Shown here: positions 3,896 through 16,474 of the stretch, piece by piece
Numbering within the stretch: the first letter of the stretch is position 1
Layout of the letters: each line of letters starts with the position of its first letter
Source: Tieghemostelium lacteum
Taxonomy: Eukaryota > Evosea > Eumycetozoa > Dictyosteliales > Raperosteliaceae
Length of the DNA: 64,000 bases
Direction: 5' to 3'
Assembly (NCBI GenBank): GCA_001606155.1
Contig: LODT01000051.1
Location: forward strand, 248,001-312,000
Notes under the pieces: generated by a model
Told to the model about the DNA's origin: nothing
The model's input: only the letters and a program-made list of their open reading frames with translations
Databases searched by the model: none
Program-made: the position numbers and the translations under genes

Positions 3896-4027
3896 TTATC
3901 TGGTGCACAATGTTGATGAAATTTCACCAATTAAAATAAATTAATTTTATTTTTAGAAACTCACCACTCTGATAAGTTTCCTATATATTTTTTTTAAATT
4001 CTTTGTTTTTTCTATTGGGTTATTATA

Positions 4028-5716
4028 ATGGATCAAAAGCAACATGAATATAAGGTACTACCAAGGTATTTGATTATTTCTATATTAGAATATTTAAATT
4101 GTCATTTGAAGGAACACAGAGAATTGAATTACACCAAATTCATATCAACACTGTGTCTGGTCAGTAAAGAGTTCTATACAGAGATTGTACCAAAGATACA
4201 AGATTACCACTACAAGATCTATTTTGAAGGTAATTTAGAGTCATTTATCAAAAGGAAGATTAAAAATGGATTGAGAGTGGAAATGTATCTTGACAGTATC
4301 ATGGAAGAATACATTGAACATCAAGATCAAATAGCTGATAACATATATGAGATCAGTGCTTTTGAACCACACCCTCTGACAATATTGGCGTATATTGATT
4401 TTAAACCAATGTCAGTTGTGAATTTCTATGCATCTGGAATTGTGAATCCAAATGATTTAGATAGAATATTATCAGTATCCGATCAGAAAATGAAGTTACT
4501 TGAAAAGTTGAATTTGTCCTTTGAAAACGATATCAATCTAAATACTCAATTACCTCATTTATTGAATCTTAATAATCAACTGAAATCAATGGTATTGGCA
4601 TCGAGTGGCAATTTTATGGATGGAATTGATATACTATGTCGATTTAGTAAGTTAACTCATGTTTCTATTGATAAAACTAATATAGTCTGCCTGGATATAA
4701 TCAATTTTTTACAGAACTCTACGATATTGAATAGCTTTGAATATGATTTTCACAGTCAAAAGACTAATGTTGAACATGTGTCTATTATATTCAAATTGAT
4801 TTGTTCTAAGCAGACTATGGAGGATGTTAAATTATATAATTGTAATATGCCATTATCTGTGTTGGTACATGGTATAAATAGGAATAAATCGATAAAGGTA
4901 CTTCAAATCTATGGTATTATAAACAGAATAGATGAATTTAATCTAAAGATTAAAAATCAAACTTTAACAAAACTCTATTTGTATAAGGATGTATTCCATT
5001 ATTTGGAGAACTCAATATCCATTCTATCACTATGGGTTGTACCATCATCCCTACAATTCATCTATATCTTTAATAGTCATGAACTAATGTCTAGAGAATA
5101 CTTTACAAAACATCATCCAAATATAGTCTCTATTGAATTGGATGGTGGTGCAGGTAGAGATACCTCACAACATCTGTGTGATTGGATTAGTCAAAACTCA
5201 CCCAAACTCACAGAGGTCATATTCCACACTAACAGAGACCAATTACCACCAGATTTCTTCACACCAGTTTTACAAGCAATATCAGTAAGCAAGTATCTCT
5301 CACAGTTTATAAACAGTTCGCCTACAGAGTTTGCTCAAATCAATCAATTGATAGCAATGAATCATCCTACTCTCTATAAGATTTCATTTTCAAAAGCTAT
5401 CAATTGGGGTATCTCTGAAATTACAAAATCTCTGATTGCCAATCCTGTATTGAGATACATTAGAATCTCAACCATTAAATGCACAGTCAGAGAGAGTATT
5501 CAAGAATTTTTCCAACACCTATCACTTATAATCTCACAAAATCACCAATTATCTCATATCATTTTACCATCACCAACACAAAGAGAGATTGGACCTGATG
5601 ATTTTATAGATATTCAACGTGTAATCAAAGAAAACAATCAGTATTTACATCAACTCGACATTTGCACAAACCATCGAATATTTAGAAAATATTTAAATAA
5701 TCAAGTCATTTATTAA
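4028..5716 (+). CDS. F-box/LRR-like dictyostelid family protein
   Basis: Single-exon gene for 562 residues. The N-terminus (VLPRYLIISILEYLN...LCLVSKEFYTEIVP, residues about 10-55) has the spacing of an F-box-like motif: LP, then I-L-YL, then LVSK. The rest is a long run of irregular leucine-rich segments without a membrane span or catalytic motif. The N-terminal block is similar in layout to that of the gene at 57354-58968, so both belong to one expanded amoebal family. By analogy it may be a substrate receptor of an SCF ubiquitin ligase; this is inference. It is convergent with the giant gene, 130 bp apart, and a 34-bp repeat begins right after its stop codon. Confidence 0.7.
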   Translation: MDQKQHEYKVLPRYLIISILEYLNCHLKEHRELNYTKFISTLCLVSKEFYTEIVPKIQDYHYKIYFEGNLESFIKRKIKNGLRVEMYLDSIMEEYIEHQDQIADNIYEISAFEPHPLTILAYIDFKPMSVVNFYASGIVNPNDLDRILSVSDQKMKLLEKLNLSFENDINLNTQLPHLLNLNNQLKSMVLASSGNFMDGIDILCRFSKLTHVSIDKTNIVCLDIINFLQNSTILNSFEYDFHSQKTNVEHVSIIFKLICSKQTMEDVKLYNCNMPLSVLVHGINRNKSIKVLQIYGIINRIDEFNLKIKNQTLTKLYLYKDVFHYLENSISILSLWVVPSSLQFIYIFNSHELMSREYFTKHHPNIVSIELDGGAGRDTSQHLCDWISQNSPKLTEVIFHTNRDQLPPDFFTPVLQAISVSKYLSQFINSSPTEFAQINQLIAMNHPTLYKISFSKAINWGISEITKSLIANPVLRYIRISTIKCTVRESIQEFFQHLSLIISQNHQLSHIILPSPTQREIGPDDFIDIQRVIKENNQYLHQLDICTNHRIFRKYLNNQVIY

Positions 5717-5845: not shown

Positions 5846-8800
5846 TTATAGAAAATTGTTATGTAATGGTGGAATAATTCTTTCAATTGCTTCTTTCATG
5901 TTGGAAATGATTGCAAAATGAAGTGGAGTCATTTGATCAATTCTATCAGTTTTGTGAATATTAAGTTTATGACTGTTATGATAGTCAATGATTGCTGTTA
6001 ACATTCTGTTGAATTCTTGAGTGTTTTGATAGATTTTCAAGAATTCATAGAGAATAGTATTTCCTCTTTCATTTGTTAATCCAATAGAGTTGAATTGTCC
6101 ACTCACAATTTCTTTGAGGTTGATAGGTTGATTGAGGAGTTTATAAACTTTTGAGAGTAGTTGAATGTCAGTATTAGATGCCAATTTATGGTAACCATTT
6201 TCATTGAAGTGGCTAATAAATTCATTATCATCTTTGAAGAATTTCCAAATGATTTTAAATGTTTTATAATCATTAGATTTGGTAACTTTATCCAGAAGAG
6301 CCCTCTTTGATTGGAAGAGGTTGTAGAGTTCTTGATGTGCTAGATTTTCATTTCCTATTGTATATGAATTGATTACAATGTATTTCGAGACCAATATCAA
6401 TGTTATGGTATAATCACTGGTGATTCCATGTCTATTTTTAAAAGATAGTTTATAATTAGAGTCTGGAGAATGAAGAAGAAGTGAAGTGATGTCATATCTT
6501 TGTTTTTCAATTGATAATTCGAAAATATCAATATTTTGTTGATTCTCATGAGGAATAGTGTGGAAGTAGTTGGGGTGTTGAAGAAGAAGGTTTAAGATTC
6601 TATTAGAGTGTTCAGAATGATTATCAATAACCATGTGAATGATGCTGTCATGATTATCATTGAAGTGTTTGGGTATAATTTGTTTGATCTTATCTTGGTC
6701 ATTAATGGAAAGAATTCTCTTTAATAACTCAAGAGTTACCAAATGAAGTTGTGGTCTTGCAATTGTATATTCTAGAATTGATTTCTTAGTTGAAGCAACG
6801 ATGTTAGTTTCGTTATCCATGAGAATAGTGAGATAGATCATTGGCATTGTTCTAATAATTTTCACAGAAATATCAACTTTCAATTCTCTGATGAATTTCC
6901 AAAGAACTTCAGGTTTGAAATCAATGATAAGACCCTTAATCTCAACATTGGAAATCTTTGTCAATGTTTCATTGAAGTGGTTATCTAATAGATTTCCAAA
7001 ACAACCAGAATTCAAGCATATTTCTAAATCTATTTTTTGAAGGTTTGGAAATTCTTCATCAGCTACTTGGAAGTCTTCTGTTACAAATTTAGTCACACCT
7101 TTTTCAATTGGTGATTGTACAGAGAATTTTTGAATTCCCAGAATCTTGGTATTATTATTGTTGATATTGTTGTTATTATTACTACTGGAATAAGAAAATG
7201 ATATTTCAACTGGTAATTTGGTTGCAGTGTGTTTTAATAATTGGTCATATTGTTTGTTTTTGATATTGGCTAGAATTACACTATTCCCACCAAAGAGTGA
7301 AGTACCAGAGAAAACTTGGATGAATTTGTCAAAGAAATCTTGAGATTCTTTTTCAGAGGGGTTGAATTTACGAAAATCTATTGATGATATCCATGTGTTG
7401 ATTTCTCTTGATAATGGTGAGTTATAAGATGATTTATAGGTGTGACCATCTTTTTTAACTAATTTGGATGAAACTGAAATTGATTGGATTTTTTGTTGAG
7501 TTGATGATTGCCTTTTGATGTTTGAGCTATCTGATTTCTTTTCAGAAACAACTTGTTCATAGAGTTCTCTGATTGATTCGAGGTTATCTCCTTTTTGTTT
7601 GAATAATTGGTACCATGAACTTATTCCTGGGTAGAGATGATGGAAAATGGTGTTTAAGAGAATCGAGGGATTCAGTTGTATTAGATTGCTGATTTGGAGT
7701 AGAGTTTGGTATACTTCAGTGATAGTTCTTCCGGGGAACTGAATTGGTAGATTATAGATATCTTTGGTGGTTTGATCTAGTTTGTTGAAAAGTTCATTTT
7801 GTTTCAACAATTTATCTATCCATTCTAAAAGAATCATTTCAGGTTGATATTTCTTTGTCAATTTTTCAATTAGTGTTGGATGAACTGGTTTGTTCATTTG
7901 TGGGAAGAAATAGAGGATATTCAAAATATGATAATGAAGTCTATTGTTATTGGAGTTGATTGTAGAGTTGTAGAATGAGATATCATTATCAATTCCATAA
8001 AGATGAACTGTTTCGATAATTGATGAATCAGAAGGTGATAATTGAATATCAATGATGAAGTTATCAGGTTTGGCATCACCAGGTCTGGTTAAGAATGATG
8101 AAATGACAAGTCCTGAGAAATTATAGTGATCAATGAGATTAATGATATTTTTATCATTTGAATAATTAGCGAGGTTATATCCATGAATGGTTTTGGTTGC
8201 CAAATAGTAATCAAAAGATCCAGGTTCTCTTTCAATCTTTATGAGATTTGATTCTGGGCATATTGATTCACAGATTAGATTCTGCAACTGAGATGCTGCA
8301 AATTCAATACCTGCAGAGTATGGATCTTTTTTGAAGTGAAGTCCACTTGATTTACTCTCTTTTACTGAATGACTACCAAATTCAATTTGGTCTTTAGTTG
8401 CTTTATCCAAATACAAGTCATAATAGATACCAAAGTTTAGAATTCCTTTACTACCATTACTGAGATTCTCAAAATGAATCAACTTGTCATTGATCTTTTT
8501 ACTAAACAAACTGGATTTGTTTTTGTAAAGTTGATAAGAAGAGTAATGTGATCGAAGTGATTCTAGTTGGTACTTTGTGTTGATCGTTAAAATCTCTTTA
8601 CTCTTGTTGATTACAGCTTCTAAATTTGTAATCAATGAACTCAATGGATTTGTGAGTTTATAATCTGTTGCGTATTTCAAAGGTAGATTAATTTTAGAAT
8701 TTTCAAAGAGAGGTTTTAGTTGACTATTGTTGGAGAAGATGGTGGTGGGTTCAAAATTAAGATTTTGAATTTGTTGATGAAATTCAATCTTCATTTTTTC

Positions 8801-11800
8801 TTTGAATTCTTGTTGTTGTGCTTTGATTTTTTGTTGGATTTCAAATACAATCGATGCAAATTGTTGTTCTGCATATTGATTTATAGATTCTTTAGATGCT
8901 CTAAGTTGGTTTTCTTTGGCTATAGCCAAAGCTTTATCAATTAAACCAGTTTTACGATAGATATTAACCAATGAAATGAGGGCAGGAAAGTGTGGTACCA
9001 ATGGTTCCCATATTTCGTATTCGTCCCAAACCAATTCAAAAATTAACTGTGCTTTTGAGTAATACTTGAATGATGCCAATAATAAACCAATGATATAGAA
9101 TGAATCCATCATTGTAGTTGGGAGGAATGAGTTATCAAATTTAAGTTGTTTACTAACTTGGAGTGCCAATTGTTTCTCATTGAGTTTCAATAGAGAATAG
9201 ACATATAGTTGAGTGTATTCTGAAATGACAGATTTCTGACCAAATACACTTTCATAAAGTTCGCGACATTTCTTGAAGTTTCCATTTCTAATCTCTTCAA
9301 CCAAGATATTATATAGAGTATCTTGTTGTGTAATATGTTTTCTCGTACTGAGATGATAGTGTGGAAGGTTTTTTAAAAATAATTCTTTTTCTGATTGGTT
9401 TGGGAAAATTAAATTGTACTCTAAAGATACTCCATCTTCCCTATAACCTACTGTGAAAGGATCATCATCGTCATGGTATGGTACAACATTATCATAAGTT
9501 TGTTGTAGGTCTAATATCAATTTATAATGGTATTTCTTGTCTGTGGATTCTTTAACGAGTAAAAGACAGTCATTAAATAAAAAATAGTTCAAATTAGAGG
9601 CATTAGTTCTACCATTTATATCAAACAGAACAACATTGCCTTTTGAAACATAAAGTCTACTAGGTGTAATGAGATGAATGTTCTCTTTTGATATCAGATT
9701 TTCTTGAACATGAGCTACCATGTTCATACTCTCACTCCTTTTGACTGAATCTCTAACATATTGATTCACATTCTGGACAGAGTTAATGGAATTCAATATA
9801 CAAGTATACTCATCACCATTTTTAATTGTTTTTTGTTTGAGATTCTCTAAAACTAATAGATAATCATTTAATCTGAAATTTACACTTGTTAAAACTACAC
9901 CAACCCAAATAGGACATGCTTGCTTTTTTTCTGCCAAAAAATCCATATATTTGTCAAATTTACAACAAAAAGTGCTATATATTTTAAAAAATACAGAGAT
10001 TTGAATGAAGAGCTCCGGTATTCTTCTTCTTTTATGAAGGGACCAACTATCAAAAATATTTTTCAAGCTGGCATTAAATTGTTCATGCCAAGGTAATATT
10101 GATTTCAGATCAGTGAAAATCTCTGACCAAATTGGATTTTTGGCGTTATTGGTTGTATTTACTGTAACTATATAATAATCAATGACCTTTTTAATATCCA
10201 TGATATAAGAATTCTCTGAATCAATTAATTCAACAAAATAATTGTAAAAATCAGCTGCCATTTTACATATTTTCTTATATTTGGATCTACATAGATAAGC
10301 ATTTACAATTCTTTTACATATTATCAAAGAATCCTGATGTATTAGATCTTGATAGTACTTCAATACTTCTTTAGATATTGTTTTGGATAGTAAAATATTA
10401 ACTGCTCCCTCCCTTACTTTTTTGTTAAGATTAGATTGAGAATTAATGGAGGATGGAGATGGTGTCAAATATGAGAATAAATTTAACCGAAGGCTATAGT
10501 GAGATGATGAATAGTTGGGTACATTATTACCTGTATATCCTATGTTTGGTTTGGAAATTGGTCCAATTGGATCGATTTTCTCTTTATAGTAATCAATAGA
10601 GTCGCCTTGATCTTTATAATCTGACAGATATTCTAATAATTGTGTGTGATCTCGCAAAAATAACATCTGAATATGGTCTCCATCTTCAAAATTACTTTGC
10701 CATTTATCAACAAGTGTTTTAGAAATCAAATGGTTTTCTGACAATGCAAATACCAATGCAATATATCTGATCTGTGATATAGAGTCGATATTGGAATTGT
10801 GTAGGTATATAAATGGACCAATTTCTACTCCACCATTTATAGTGAATATTTGGTCATTTTTAATGAGATATTCTAGAATATCAAATTGATTGTATCTGAT
10901 GGCTGCATGGAATGGTGTGTCCCATAGTAGATTTCCAGATATCATTTCTTGGTATATATATTGCATGTATTGGTTAGAAAATGGCATCAAATATTTGACC
11001 ATTATTATATTTCCACATTGAATGGACCCTCTAAGTAACTCCCAGGACTTCATTGGGATTAGATAATCATTTTCCTTCCAATTTTTGTTTTGATAATTGT
11101 TTAATAATGATCCATCATTTCTATTTACTTGATCTAATCTCATATTCATATAAACAATATTATACCATTCTGCTTTGTTACTTTCTGGTAAACTGGCAAT
11201 GGATTCATATACATAGTGTTTTGGAGATATATATCCCATCTCGGACTCTGGCATATTCACTTTATCATCGGCCTTTGCCATAATAACTCTATCAAATAAC
11301 ATATCTAGTTCATCTTTGTTGGGATGTTGAAAATCTTCAGTTGGTTGGCAATTACTGTTGATATATGTGATTATATTGCTGTTAACAGATGATTTTATGA
11401 TGGTTTTGGTATCATTGATTATGTATTGATATTCATTTATATCTCTGAATTGGCTACAATTATCATTATTACTAATTGTATAATAAATTATTTTACTACT
11501 ATTAAATTCTTTAGTTACTTCTGTTGAGTTTATAATTTTCATTGTGTTGTTGCTATTATTATTATTATAATTATAATTATTGGTTAAAGATTTTGTCCAT
11601 TGTTCCTCTTCAAATGTCCAAAGGTAAATTTTATCTTTTTTAGAGGATGTGTCCTTTTTTGATAGCAAATTCAAATGGAGAATTGATGAAATTGAACCAC
11701 CAGTTGAATATCCAATGATATTCAAAGTTCCATCCCTATGGTTTTGATAAAATTGTTGAATTGATTTCTCTAAATGATCTTTCCAGACGAAATCAAATAG

Positions 11801-13986
11801 AGAGAAGAAATAGGAATCTATTTCAGTACCATCAATATTGGTGTTTTTTATCAACAAATATTTAGTTTTATCAATAGTTGATTCTTTAACACCAATGGAT
11901 ATATACAACTGGTTTTCATGTTCGATGGTGATAGTTGAGACTTTACTATAGTTTACAATAGTACAGTTAGATTGAAATGATGATTCGGTTATGTTTGGGA
12001 ACCATTTACGAATATAATTGTGAACTATAATTGTGAAATTTTGTTGTTGGAGATATGCTAACATTGCGAATTCAAAGTATTGTTGTGATTTGATGGTGTT
12101 GATTCTGGTTTGGTTAGAACTATTATTATTGTTTTGGATGGGGAGAAATGGTGAGGTGGAGAGTTTAGGAATTATGATATTACAAATGGAATCACAAATA
12201 AATTGAGGTGAGTGGGTATTATAGTCAATGTTCTTTAAGTTGAATAATGTCTCAAAGAATTGATCGGAAAAGAGAGTAATCAAAAATGACCATCTATTTT
12301 TGTTTTCTTCATATCCTGAGATTGTGATTTTGTTCCCAGATTTAGCGAAAAGGTAATCTTGAAAGTCATCGAGTGTCGACATTGAAATTAGTGGTATTTT
12401 TACACTGAAATTCTTGTCGAGAATAATATCTCGATAGAATGTCATGATTCTGATAGAGAATAACTGAGCAGTCTCTGAGAATATTTGTTGAGTTCTGAAT
12501 TGTAACATTACATTCTGAGCTTTCTTTGAACGTAGTTTTTTATCAATTGTTGATATAATACCACCGATGATGGATCCTAAACCACCTGGGAATAGATCAA
12601 CAATTACAGCTGCAACTTTAGAAGCAATCAACCCACCAGTTGAGTTTTGTATTTCTACACCACCTTCATTGTAAGTTGACAATTGTTCATTCAATCTATA
12701 AAGACTCTGAAGTGAATTCAAAAGACATTGGTGAAAATTTACCAATAATGATCTGGTAGATTCCTGTTTGTTTGAGAGTAAGGTGATTGAACTCTCAATA
12801 TACTGTTCAGTTTGGATTTTCTTTTGTTGATCACTGACAATTTCAGGATAGTCTTTCAACAATTCAATGTATTCAGATTTCATATTTAGTTTATCCAACA
12901 TTTCAATTTTAGAAGAATCACAATCCAAAATATCTCTAACAAAATCAATTGGTAACTCATTGGTGATTGACCAATCTAAAAATACTATGATTTTGAAAAT
13001 TTGAATATTTTTCATTGATGTTAATAATATCACCTCTTTTCATTTGAAATTTAATTAAATCACTGTATGAAATCTATGAATTTAAATTTTTGTGTATTAA
13101 TAAAATATGAATATTTATATGTTCATATAAAATTAATTAATTAACTTACAGTGTCATCTTTAGAGAGTTCTTTAAGATTCTTTGAAATTATGTTTATAAG
13201 TATAGAAAGGGTGTCTTTTCTAGGATTGTGAATTTCTAACTTGTTATAGATATTATCCAATAAATTAATATTAACTTTAATATTACAATTCTGAAGTATA
13301 GTTCTAAATGACTCAATAGACATTGGTGGCTATTAAATTTACTCAGATATTAGTATTTTATCTAGAATGTGTAGAATTTATAAAATACATACAATAACAT
13401 TGCTAAACTTTATATTAATATCATTGTTTTCAATGTTTATAAAATTGAGATCTTTAAGGTACTTTATGAGCAAAGTTTCATTTTTGATTTTATCTTGTTG
13501 AGATAAAAGAGATGGTGAAATTTCAAAAAGATAATAACATGCATTCTCACTCTGAATATCTCTAATTTGATTAGATGACAATGATTTGAGTTCATTTATA
13601 AGATTCTGATCATTCTGATTACTGATACCAAATCGATTCCAAACTGAAGATCTTTCATTGTTGTTATCAGGTGATAAAGAAAATGTATTTACCAATAACT
13701 TTCCATTAATTCTACAATCTCTAAAGGAAGTAACCATCGACTCAGATGCTTTCTTTGTTGACAACCAATGTGTTACTTCACTATATGACCAATCAATAAG
13801 CGATTTATTTATCATAGTTTGATATTCTTGTTGTTGTTGTTCTATTAGTTGGTATTTTAAATTTTTACATCTTAGGACCCACAAATGAGATAAATAAAAT
13901 AAAAATTTTAGATTCTCTTCTTTTAGTGTTAATTTTTCAGTGCTATTAGATGGAACAAATACCAATGAGATATTTGATTCCACCAT
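5846..13986 (-). CDS. Giant multidomain protein: SAM-like, lipase-like, ankyrin, RhoGEF DH-PH, helical repeats, kinase-like, ankyrin
   Basis: Three exons: 13986-13393, 13329-13150 and 13033-5846. All joins are phase 0 and the product is about 2,653 residues. The ATG at 13986 is the first in frame. From the N-terminus I see a SAM-like domain (about 64-137). Next is a class-3-lipase-like region with nucleophile motif GYSTGG (Ser near 701), then ankyrin-like repeats (about 915-1010). A RhoGEF DH domain follows (about 1177-1352), directly followed by a PH domain (about 1372-1482) and TPR-like helices. A kinase-like region (about 1780-2015) has DAKPDNF as possible catalytic loop (Asp near 1911) and GIDNDISF as possible metal-binding segment. 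More ankyrin-like repeats run to the C-terminus. DH-PH suggests activation of Rho/Rac GTPases. Lipase and kinase activity are inferred from motifs only, and the lipase Asp/His were not located. Confidence 0.8.
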
Positions 13987-14906: not shown

Positions 14907-16374
14907 TTATTTATTTAAAAGCACTTTAATTAATCTATCAGCAAGAGTTAAATCAATTTTAGAGAGATCATAATCAGTATTGTTTTCAACAAGTTTAGAG
15001 AGTATATTTCTATTGATTCTACCAGTATTTTGAGCTTCAGAATAAGGAGTGGTAGAGAAAGAAATCAATTCATAACGACTAATATATCTACCAGGGAATT
15101 TAGTCTCTAGTAGATGTTCGACTTTTTTCTGGAATACAAATAAAGGATCTGCAACAAGATCTCTCATTTCAAAAAAGTTTTCAACAGCCATCTCTGCAAT
15201 GGCATCTGAGTTTGCTTTTCTTGCGTTCTGATAGGATTTATAAGCATTTTCTAATTTCTCAGCAGAGAATGATTCCAATGAGGCATCTGGGAATGTATTT
15301 ATCATGGTATTATAAAATTCCAAACAATCCTCAAAAGCAGCATTCATACCTTGTCCATAGAATGGTACAATGGCATGTGCAGCATCACCAACTAGTACTG
15401 AGGTATCTTTATAATACCATGGTTCAGTTTTAATTGTAACTAATGATGATGTAGGATTTTGGAAATAGTCTTCTAGGAGAGTTGGCATCATACCATAGGC
15501 ATCTGGGAATACTCTCTTAAAGAATTCCTCTACTTGATCCTTTGAATTCAATTTTGAAAAACAATCGCCACCTTCCTCAATACTATCGAATGGGAAGAAT
15601 AAGGTACATGTAAAACTGCCATCGATATTAGGTAATGCAATCATCATATAACTATTTCTTGGCCAAATATGTAATGAATTCTTATCCAATTTAAATGATC
15701 CATCTTCATTAGCTGGTATTGAAAGTTCCTTATATCCATGCTTTAAATAAGACTGTGAATATTCCTGTCTATCAAATTTAACCATATTAGATCTAACCTG
15801 TGAAAATGCACCATCACTATATACCCAAATATATTAATATACTTAATTACCATCATTTCAAGTAATCTACATACCATCCAATTAAAGTGTTAAAAGAATA
15901 TTTTGAAGTATTGTTTAATTTAGTATCAGTTGAGGTAAAAGTTTTTGAACGTAAATTCAATTCACTGATATTTGAGTTGTAATGAAATTTAACATTACCA
16001 AGTTCATCTGCATGCCCTTTAAGTTTATCATTTAAAAGTTGTCTAGATACAGAATAGAGACAACGATTGGCATCTGATGAATAGGGTTGGAATGTTTGCT
16101 TTCCATCAACACTGTGAATCATTCTACCATTCATTGGTATGGCAATATCCTGAATCTCATGGATAATTCCAGTTTTTTCCAATGTCTTAATACCTCTTTC
16201 AGAAAGTGCTAAATTAATTGATCTAGCTCTCTGTTGTGGATCATTCTCTCTTGGTCTCTTTTCAAAAACATGAATGTTCTTGTACCCGTATTTACCTAAG
16301 AGGAGAGCTAATGCTGATCCTGAGAGACCTCCACCTACAATTGAAATAGAAATTGGGGTTACTAAAGCTGACAT
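14907..16374 (-). CDS. kmo: Kynurenine 3-monooxygenase
   Basis: FAD enzyme that hydroxylates L-kynurenine to 3-hydroxykynurenine with NADPH and O2, in tryptophan breakdown and de novo NAD synthesis. Two exons, 16374-15875 and 15816-14907, joined over a 58-nt intron, restore the conserved IGCDGAFSQVR block and give 469 residues, the usual length. Visible motifs: N-terminal Rossmann VGGGLSGSALALLL (FAD), RARSINLALSERG (substrate-side motif characteristic of the enzyme), and GDAAHAIVPFYGQGMNAAFEDC (FAD ribityl binding). The C-terminal membrane anchor of animal KMO is not obvious; the tail is a short amphipathic helix. It is tail-to-tail with the small membrane protein gene, only 54 bp apart. Confidence 0.95.
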
Positions 16375-16474
16375 GATATATAATTTGATTTTTATTAATC
16401 AATTTATAAAATAAAATTTTATTTAGCGTTATCACCCAAAAAATTATTTTACAAAATACGTAACATAACTATAC

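What the first reader, a model, noticed from the sequence alone, without database searches (positions are those of the whole stretch)
5846..13986. Giant protein combining lipase-like, RhoGEF, kinase-like and ankyrin modules
One phase-consistent three-exon gene encodes a SAM-like domain, a lipase-like GYSTGG nucleophile, ankyrin repeats, adjacent DH and PH domains, TPR-like helices, a kinase-like segment (DAKPDNF, GIDNDISF) and more ankyrin repeats. I know of no named protein with this combination. It would put lipid hydrolysis, Rho/Rac activation and phosphoryl transfer on one chain.
Basis: partly seen in the sequence, partly recalled or inferred. Interest (0 to 1): 0.85.

Follow-up and report, generated by a model that had tools for sequence, protein, structure and literature searches.

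The report
Bacterial-type giant kinase-lipase with RhoGEF insert
A social amoeba carries a giant gene whose lipase-like, ankyrin and kinase-like parts resemble giant proteins of intracellular bacteria, and in one of two near-identical neighbouring copies a Rho-activator module sits inside it, which makes it an unusually clear case of a bacterial-style multi-part protein shared with, and altered in, a eukaryote.

Summary
The observation largely holds. Window 13986-5846 (-) encodes 2653 aa if three exons are joined. Pfam supports Lipase_3, ankyrin and RhoGEF; SAM is below cut-off and no kinase model hits. The kinase-like segment (KL) is real: it matches giant Rickettsiales ORFs (L040, L048, L054, L063; 28-35% identity) with invariant Lys, GDAKPDNF and D-x-D. 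Its model's best solved match is PI4-kinase II-beta (E 4e-4, low TM-score). L040 has the same order, lipase-ANK-TPR-KL. So this is no free fusion but a family shared by intracellular bacteria and an amoeba. DH-PH is a discrete 1149-nt cassette, absent from an inverted 89%-identical copy outside the window and from two distant paralogues. KL motifs are intact; the lipase acid aligns to Glu (Val in the copy) and DH conserved region 3 is degenerate. The exon 2-3 join needs a downstream acceptor, since the copy's acceptor frameshifts here. Transfer direction is unresolved. Most likely: a bacterial-type phosphoinositide-kinase scaffold with a RhoGEF-fold insert.

The parts
13393..13986 (-). Exon 1 (198 aa), start ATG at 13986; SAM-like match at aa 52-100, below Pfam cut-off
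13330..13392 (-). Intron 1, 63 nt, GT-AG
13150..13329 (-). Exon 2 (60 aa)
13034..13149 (-). Intron 2, 116 nt if the acceptor is AG 13035-13034; the acceptor that keeps the neighbouring copy open corresponds to AG 13075-13074, which frameshifts here
12978..12982 (-). Run of five T; four in the copy outside the window. Frame difference that decides which acceptor works
5846..13033 (-). Exon 3 (2395 aa plus stop), intronless
11228..12130 (-). Lipase-like region, full-length aa 560-860; Pfam Lipase_3 match at 11612-11842
11696..11713 (-). GYSTGG nucleophile elbow, Ser701
10853..11035 (-). Best ankyrin (Ank_2) match, aa 925-985
9329..10477 (-). 1149-nt in-frame cassette (IQ-like stretch read by eye, DH, PH) absent from the inverted copy
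9755..10231 (-). DH (RhoGEF) domain; CR3 region reads VNFRLNDY
9398..9730 (-). PH domain, approximate limits by eye; covered by DH-PH chains in the PDB sequence search
8534..9325 (-). TPR-like helical region by position only; no Pfam hit in this protein, TPR hits in L040 and L048
7352..8533 (-). KL domain and its conserved C-terminal extension, aa 1759-2152 (core 1808-2050)
8330..8332 (-). Lys1826, invariant in alignment A1 (beta3-type lysine)
8057..8080 (-). GDAKPDNF, aa 1910-1917, catalytic-loop motif invariant in alignment A1
7982..7993 (-). I-D-N-D, aa 1939-1942, metal-site motif
5849..6946 (-). C-terminal ankyrin-like region, aa 2288-2653, similar to L048 1037-1373

Best explanation
The gene is an amoebal member of a family of giant proteins (lipase-like / ankyrin / TPR / PI4-kinase-II-like kinase / ankyrin) that I otherwise found only scattered in Proteobacteria, mostly intracellular-looking lineages, and this copy carries an in-frame IQ-DH-PH RhoGEF cassette. 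Shown: homology of the kinase-like (KL) and C-terminal parts with Rickettsiales ORFs, the shared domain order with L040, and the presence/absence of the cassette between two near-identical neighbours. Inferred: the ankyrin and TPR parts hold the protein to partners, the KL domain transfers phosphate to a phosphoinositide (less likely to a protein), and the cassette's PH domain adds membrane binding while its DH fold acts as a GTPase-binding or weak exchange module. Lipase activity is the least certain step. Bacteria-to-amoeba transfer is the favoured direction but is not shown.
For: Rickettsia KL as query finds four KL loci in this 23.3 Mb genome: two at E about 1e-55 (36-37% identity), two at 2e-6 and 1e-5. 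Invariant Lys, GDAKPDNF and D-x-D over the six rows of A1; over 24 KL rows D-x4-N stands in 21, D-x-K-x-x-N in 15, the first Asp of I-D-N-D in 22. Best PDB match of the KL model is PI4K II-beta, E 4e-4, probability 1.00. L040 has Lipase_3 1.8e-27 + ANK + TPR + KL, L054 Lipase_3 1.6e-13 + ANK + KL, L048 ANK + TPR + KL + ANK. hhalign to L094/L095 (the contigs of L040/L048): KL E 1e-28 and 1e-27, post-KL 1e-5, C-terminus 2e-13 (L095); lowest of the reversed controls 0.019. Copy B lacks query 853-1236 of exon 3, with 3 nt between the two blocks. KL and lipase dN/dS between copies 0.19 and 0.23. KL is scattered in bacteria: 6 of 343 genomes in the order of G001, three of them the seeds; 7 of 369 in the class of G004, one the seed; 1 of 398 in a phylum-wide draw, the seed itself.
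Against: No Pfam kinase model matches KL, and the KL profile finds no PDB chain by sequence up to E 10. The Foldseek match has TM-scores 0.34 and 0.30 and 7.2 A rmsd, and in the model the catalytic-loop block is of low confidence (mean 58; residues 151-154 and 185-202 under 50). The lipase model failed (pLDDT 41); lipase similarity to L094 is weak (E 7e-4) and weaker to the AlphaBW pair (0.012). The N-terminal region 262-560 (best E 0.041) and the TPR region (0.027) show no convincing pairwise similarity. The two distant amoeba paralogues lack the KL motifs, so kinase activity is not essential to the family. In nine of 24 rows D-x-K-x-x-N is not kept. DH CR3 is degenerate. dN/dS is about 1 in the SAM-like, N-terminal helical and first ankyrin parts (1.05, 1.16, 1.10). 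Trees reject neither one amoeba clade nor one Rickettsiales clade (p 0.378, 0.447), so direction is open. No other eukaryote could be searched.
Confidence: 0.6

Rival explanations
1. A pseudo-enzyme scaffold: lipase, DH and kinase-like folds all serve as binding platforms and none is catalytic; the protein is an ankyrin/TPR adaptor. (The rivals listed are not mutually exclusive.)
For: The lipase acid position aligns to Glu in A, C24 and C11 and to Val in copy B, against Asp in three bacterial rows, and GxSxG is lost in C24 and C11. CR3 of the DH is degenerate. KL motifs are lost in both distant paralogues.
Against: KL motifs are complete in this gene and its copy and shared with bacteria; KL and lipase dN/dS are 0.19 and 0.23 between the copies, against 1.1 for the ankyrin part. 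Gene conversion may lower these figures.
Confidence: 0.27
2. The transfer ran from amoeba to bacteria: the giant protein arose in amoebae and intracellular bacteria took it up as an effector.
For: Ankyrin, TPR and PI-kinase folds are common in eukaryotes (general knowledge); the unrooted trees do not settle polarity.
Against: KL is more varied in the bacteria sampled, with several architectures (nucleotidyltransferase + KL, Ras + KL, and L100 with no Pfam family at E 0.01 in the 1714 aa examined of its frame), and the bacterial-like part of this gene is a single 7.2-kb exon.
Confidence: 0.3
3. The cassette is ancestral to the two copies and was cleanly deleted from the neighbour, rather than inserted into this one.
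For: The best genomic match to the cassette outside this gene is only 25-27% identical, so no recent donor is visible, while the copies are 89% identical in protein.
Against: Both distant paralogues lack it, and no RhoGEF is listed for the bacterial relatives scanned.
Confidence: 0.45
4. Gene-model artefact: exons 1-2 and exon 3 belong to separate genes, or the frame break near 12980 is a sequencing error.
For: The acceptor that works in the copy frameshifts here; five against four T would be a typical homopolymer error (general knowledge).
Against: The copy has the same three-exon layout open over 2289 aa, and exon 3 alone carries every domain but the SAM-like one.
Confidence: 0.2

Closest known systems
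Giant ORFs of Rickettsiales: L040 (Rickettsia endosymbiont of Omalisus), L048 (Rickettsiaceae bacterium), L054/L063 (Alphaproteobacteria MAG; its genome G003 falls in the order of G001)
   Same: Order lipase - ankyrin - TPR - KL (L040), ANK - TPR - KL - ANK (L048), lipase - ANK - KL (L054); KL 28-35% identical with invariant motifs
   Different: No RhoGEF listed by Pfam, uninterrupted frames; better preserved lipase (Lipase_3 1.8e-27 in L040 against 2.7e-6 here)
Phosphatidylinositol 4-kinase type II
   Same: Best solved structural match of the KL model (9hhm_A, E 4e-4, probability 1.00); likeness of the D-x4-N and I-D-N motifs is recalled, not aligned here
   Different: 15% identity over the structural alignment, TM-score 0.34; no PF00454 match; different partner domains
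Bacterial PI-kinase effectors Risk1, LegA5/AnkK, OpiA, LepB (PMC7298712, PMC11077975 and PMC11696984, passages seen)
   Same: PI3/PI4-type active sites in proteins of intracellular bacteria
   Different: Not compared with KL in sequence here; the passages seen describe no lipase-ankyrin-KL protein; PMC11077975 has no word beginning with 'lipase' in its main text
RhoGEF gene of the same genome (C31:1087397-1088521, 820-aa frame; PX and IQ read by eye)
   Same: Matches the cassette from aa 1158 to 1493 (E 4e-24)
   Different: Only 25% identical; canonical CR3 (VVQRIPRY) where the cassette has VNFRLNDY

Membership tests
Class 3 lipase (PF01764) | Profile match over curated cut-off | tested here: met
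   27.7 bits against 22; covers 26-100 of 140 positions
Class 3 lipase (PF01764) | GxSxG nucleophile elbow | tested here: met
   GYSTGG, Ser701
Class 3 lipase (PF01764) | Catalytic Asp and His | tested here: inconclusive
   Asp position aligns to Glu here (NSTEV against NDDDI), Val in copy B (NSTVV); a candidate His in FQHPNK cannot be aligned with confidence
Class 3 lipase (PF01764) | Alpha/beta-hydrolase fold | tested here: inconclusive
   Model of low confidence, pLDDT 41
Dbl-type RhoGEF | DH profile match over cut-off | tested here: met
   46.7 bits against 27.6
Dbl-type RhoGEF | PH domain directly after DH | tested here: inconclusive
   A DH-PH chain of the PDB aligns across both (4mt7_A, exon-3 aa 932-1198, E 0.0077), but Pfam lists no PH
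Dbl-type RhoGEF | Conserved region 3 of the P-x-Q-R-x-P-R-Y type | tested here: not met
   RLNDY stands opposite RLPRY or RVPRY of three genomic DH domains and their P-x-Q opposite a gap (VNF if read without gaps, by eye); seven of the ten genomic DH rows in that alignment were cut from the wrong place and not used
PI3/PI4 kinase (PF00454) | Profile match | tested here: not met
   Not among the families up to E 5; not among those listed up to E 1 for five bacterial relatives (one of L040's 26 families is not shown)
PI3/PI4 kinase (PF00454) | Kinase fold | tested here: inconclusive
   Best Foldseek match PI4K II-beta, E 4e-4, but TM-score 0.34
PI3/PI4 kinase (PF00454) | Lys, catalytic Asp/Asn, metal-binding Asp | tested here: met
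   K1826, D1911, N1916, D1940, D1942 invariant in six rows; in 24 rows K in 17 (6 gaps), D-x4-N in 21, D1940 in 22. The equivalence to kinase residues rests on the fold match and recall
PI3/PI4 kinase (PF00454) | Phosphoinositide kinase activity | not testable with these tools
   needs an assay
Lipase-ANK-TPR-KL family of intracellular bacteria | KL domain with conserved Lys, GDAKPDNF, D-x-D | tested here: met
Lipase-ANK-TPR-KL family of intracellular bacteria | Same domain order | tested here: met
   L040 and, without TPR, L054 by Pfam; TPR in this gene only by position
SAM domain | Profile match over cut-off | tested here: not met
   15.9 bits against 24, 13.7 against 20.5

The most novel reading that the evidence does not exclude
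A host-manipulating giant protein of Rickettsia-like bacteria was taken over by a social amoeba, duplicated, and in one copy re-wired to host Rho signalling by an inserted RhoGEF cassette, so that a former bacterial effector kinase now answers to, or controls, the amoeba's own membrane and actin signalling (for example during feeding or against symbionts).
Probability: 0.35. Interest if true: 0.87.

Novelty: new variant of a known kind. Interest (0 to 1): 0.74.

Why it matters
Eukaryotic-like domains in bacterial effectors are well known; a giant architecture shared between an amoeba and Rickettsiales, with a kinase-like domain that no Pfam model matched in my scans, is much less usual. The near-identical pair with and without the RhoGEF cassette is a natural experiment on what the cassette adds. 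It also gives the KL family a member in what looks like a dictyostelid, a group that can be grown and edited, instead of bacteria that are hard to culture.

Tried and rejected
Viral relatives: a scan of viral contigs with the KL segment gave none, and five viral matches to the motif pattern showed no KL context on reading. Of the 40 genome contigs stretches, I kept five by eye (L040, L048, L054, L058, L063) for the flanking motifs and dropped the other 35. Lipase structure: pLDDT 41, not searched further. KL profile against PDB sequences: no match. TPR and N-terminal homology: weak or none. Contamination rejected: the gene has introns, lies in a 1.03-Mb contig with an F-box-like and a monooxygenase-like neighbour (read by eye), and its copy lies about 7 kb away on the same contig. 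RNA fold around intron 2 was unremarkable (z -0.38). A first codon comparison of the copies failed because I used the wrong acceptor, redone. The 'AAAAGAG' test lines printed were cut one base off and are not used; one search gives the open 2653-aa frame with that acceptor, and the stop it causes in the copy. In the DH alignment only three of ten genomic rows were usable. Eight partial or long-branch KL rows were dropped from the second tree; the first tree kept 24 rows, chosen as stretches with E under 1e-9, and gave the four amoeba genes as one side of a branch (86/71), which the second did not.

Papers: PMC7298712, PMC11696984 and PMC11077975, passages only; all others only in search listings. 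In those eight listings I saw no title or abstract start that reports this protein or a lipase-ANK-KL protein shared by amoebae and Rickettsiales; most subscription papers are not held.
Full report
Check of the observation. On the minus strand the window holds a 2397-codon open frame (13039-5846). Joining 13986-13393, 13329-13150 and 13033-5846 through two GT-AG introns gives an uninterrupted 2653-aa protein. Pfam on exon 3 reports RhoGEF 5.2e-12, Ank_2 5.3e-9 and Lipase_3 2.7e-6, all above their curated cut-offs; on exon 1 SAM models stay below theirs. The PDB sequence search gives four chains up to E 10, all RhoGEFs, the best at E 0.0005; one (4mt7_A, E 0.0077) spans DH and PH. No Pfam model covers the kinase-like segment.

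The window's genome (23.3 Mb in 43 contigs) looks like a dictyostelid. From size and base composition I would guess Tieghemostelium lacteum, but that is recall, not a result.

A neighbouring copy without the RhoGEF. Searching the genome with exon 3 gave an inverted copy (here B) at C40:240646-246603, outside the window and about 7 kb from this gene, which matches query residues 17-852 and 1237-2395 at 86% and 93% identity and skips 853-1236, with 3 nt between the blocks. At the DNA level the blocks meet at one base, so the window copy (A) has 1149 extra nt, an in-frame 383 codons (window 9329-10477). That stretch is an IQ-like segment (by eye) plus DH and PH; its best genomic relative is a separate RhoGEF at C31:1087397-1088521, 27% identical (25% over aa 1158-1493, E 4e-24). 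A and B are 89.3% identical in aligned residues (2002 of 2241); dN/dS is 0.57 overall, 0.19 in KL, 0.23 in the lipase region, 0.30-0.37 in exon 2 and the C-terminal parts, 0.66 in the TPR part, 0.80 in aa 801-900, and about 1 in the SAM-like exon, the N-terminal helical part and the ankyrin region next to the cassette (1.05, 1.16, 1.10). The longest identical run is 516 nt against 241 nt near the 99.9th percentile of 2000 random placements of the mismatches. That patchiness suggests gene conversion, which would also lower some ratios, so I use them with caution.

The frame. B is open over 2289 aa with acceptor CATAG|ATTTC. The same acceptor in A gives only 296 aa because A has five T at 12982-12978 where B has four; A's frame is open with the acceptor 40 nt downstream, which in B runs into a stop.

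Two distant paralogues. C24 (L021, 1910-codon frame) and C11 (L022, 1906) share the KL region and the lipase region with A. Both have Lipase_3 and many ankyrins, and Pfam lists no RhoGEF. In both, the KL motifs are gone (GSASPHA and GFNPALL in place of GDAKPDN). A search of the genome with the Rickettsia KL gives these four loci and no other up to E 1.

Bacterial relatives. A DNA pattern for GD[AG]KPDN[FY], built from the window's motif, hit 40 stretches in genome contigs. Reading all 40, I judged five to have KL flanks: L040 (Rickettsia endosymbiont of Omalisus), L048 (Rickettsiaceae bacterium), L054 and L063 (one Alphaproteobacteria MAG contig), and L058 (Proteobacteria MAG SZAS-82). KL of A is 35, 33, 28, 28 and 21% identical to L040, L048, L063, L054 and L058, with invariant Lys1826, GDAKPDNF and D-x-D. 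BLAST gives E 1e-50 (L040) and 6e-47 (L048), plus 2e-21 for the C-terminal part against L048. Pfam: L040 has Lipase_3 1.8e-27, ankyrins and TPR before KL; L054 Lipase_3 1.6e-13 and ankyrins; L048 ankyrins, TPR, KL, ankyrins; L058 an ankyrin match; L063 only ankyrin matches below cut-off. L097, the second giant ORF of the L054 contig, again has Lipase_3 (1.4e-11) and ankyrins. L040 is cut at its 3' side by the contig end. hhalign of single A segments supports KL (E 1e-28 to 1e-25), the stretch after it (1e-5 with L094 and L095, 0.002 with the L096/L097 pair) and the C-terminus (2e-13 with L095, 8e-5 with the pair, nothing with the cut L094); support is weak for the lipase (7e-4 with L094, 0.012 with the pair) and the first ankyrins (0.002 to 0.13), 0.027 at best for TPR and 0.041 at best for 262-560. 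The reversed-sequence controls start at 0.019; the cassette finds nothing (0.12 or worse).

Spread. With the KL profile, 6 of 343 genomes of the order of G001 match, three of them the seeds G001-G003; 7 of 369 of the class of G004, one the seed; and 1 of 398 of a phylum-wide draw, namely the seed. Only the best candidates are scored, so these are lower bounds. In four of the further ORFs KL occurs with a nucleotidyltransferase-type domain over cut-off (L098, L099, L102, L103; in L101 such matches stay below), along with ankyrin and in some leucine-rich repeats; L105 has ankyrins; L104 has Ras-like stretches and three KL-matching stretches, which I read as two KL domains; L100 has no Pfam family at E 0.01 in the part examined. 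The domain is thus sporadic, on giant ORFs, and combined with domains that can act on host signalling: what one expects of effectors, although secretion was not tested.

What KL is. AlphaFold2 on the six-row alignment gave mean pLDDT 66.5 and pTM 0.68; ten-residue blocks over most of residues 61-310 lie between 73 and 95, but the block with the catalytic loop is at 58 and the stretch after I-D-N-D at 32-46. Its only PDB match under 0.001 is PI4-kinase II-beta (E 4e-4, probability 1.00, TM 0.34 and 0.30, 15% identity); protein kinases follow from 0.006 and CtkA at 0.023. Across 24 KL rows D-x4-N stands in 21, D-x-K-x-x-N in 15, the first metal-site Asp in 22 and the Lys in 17 with six gaps; the only rows without that Asp are C24 and C11. 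Together this points to the PI3/PI4-kinase type of fold, but sequence profiles do not reach PF00454, so I say it works like such a kinase, not that it is a member.

State of the other active sites. Lipase: Ser701 is in a proper elbow; the acid position aligns to Glu in A, C24 and C11, to Val in B, and to Asp in three bacterial rows; the histidine cannot be placed with confidence. RhoGEF: CR3 reads VNFRLNDY where three genomic DH domains and C31 have (P/V)(V/I)QR(L/V/I)PRY.

History. In a 24-row KL tree the four amoeba genes form one side of a branch (86/71), next to L094 + L095 (83/61), and amoeba plus Rickettsiales are together at 91/98. With eight rows removed, amoeba plus Rickettsiales remain together (93/90), but neither a single amoeba clade (p 0.378) nor a single Rickettsiales clade (p 0.447) is rejected. 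Wider bacterial variety and the single-exon bacterial-like part favour transfer into the amoeba; the opposite is not excluded. Whether the cassette entered A or left B is also open: both distant paralogues lack it, yet no close donor was found.

Verdict. The finding is real and interesting in a different way from that proposed: not a one-off fusion of three enzymes, but a giant protein type shared with intracellular bacteria, carrying in one copy a RhoGEF-fold insert. The kinase-like part is the best candidate for activity.

Noticed in passing
C40:239584-246588 (L014 1085-8089), outside the window: Inverted near-identical copy of the gene, without the DH-PH cassette; patchy identity suggests gene conversion; its lipase acid position is Val
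   Followed up: yes
L021 3224-8956 (-) and L022 2849-8569 (+): Two distant paralogues with Lipase_3 and many ankyrins whose KL catalytic motifs and lipase GxSxG are lost
   Followed up: partly
L102, L103, L098, L099 (L101 below cut-off): Bacterial giant ORFs joining a nucleotidyltransferase-type domain (SidM_N or DUF294-like) to a KL domain and ankyrin or leucine-rich repeats
   Followed up: partly
L104 2108-10000 (+): Bacterial ORF with Ras-like stretches and, as I read the three matching stretches, two KL-like domains in one chain
   Followed up: no
L096 and L097 (one contig of G003): Two giant lipase-ankyrin-KL ORFs on one contig (3144 and 3461 codons) in a bacterial genome of about 0.8 Mb
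   Followed up: no
window 14907-16398 (-): Flavoprotein monooxygenase-like gene, apparently in two exons; read by eye only
   Followed up: no
window 3998-5716 (+), and L014 8138-9847 (+): F-box/LRR-like genes beside each of the two giant copies; read by eye only
   Followed up: no
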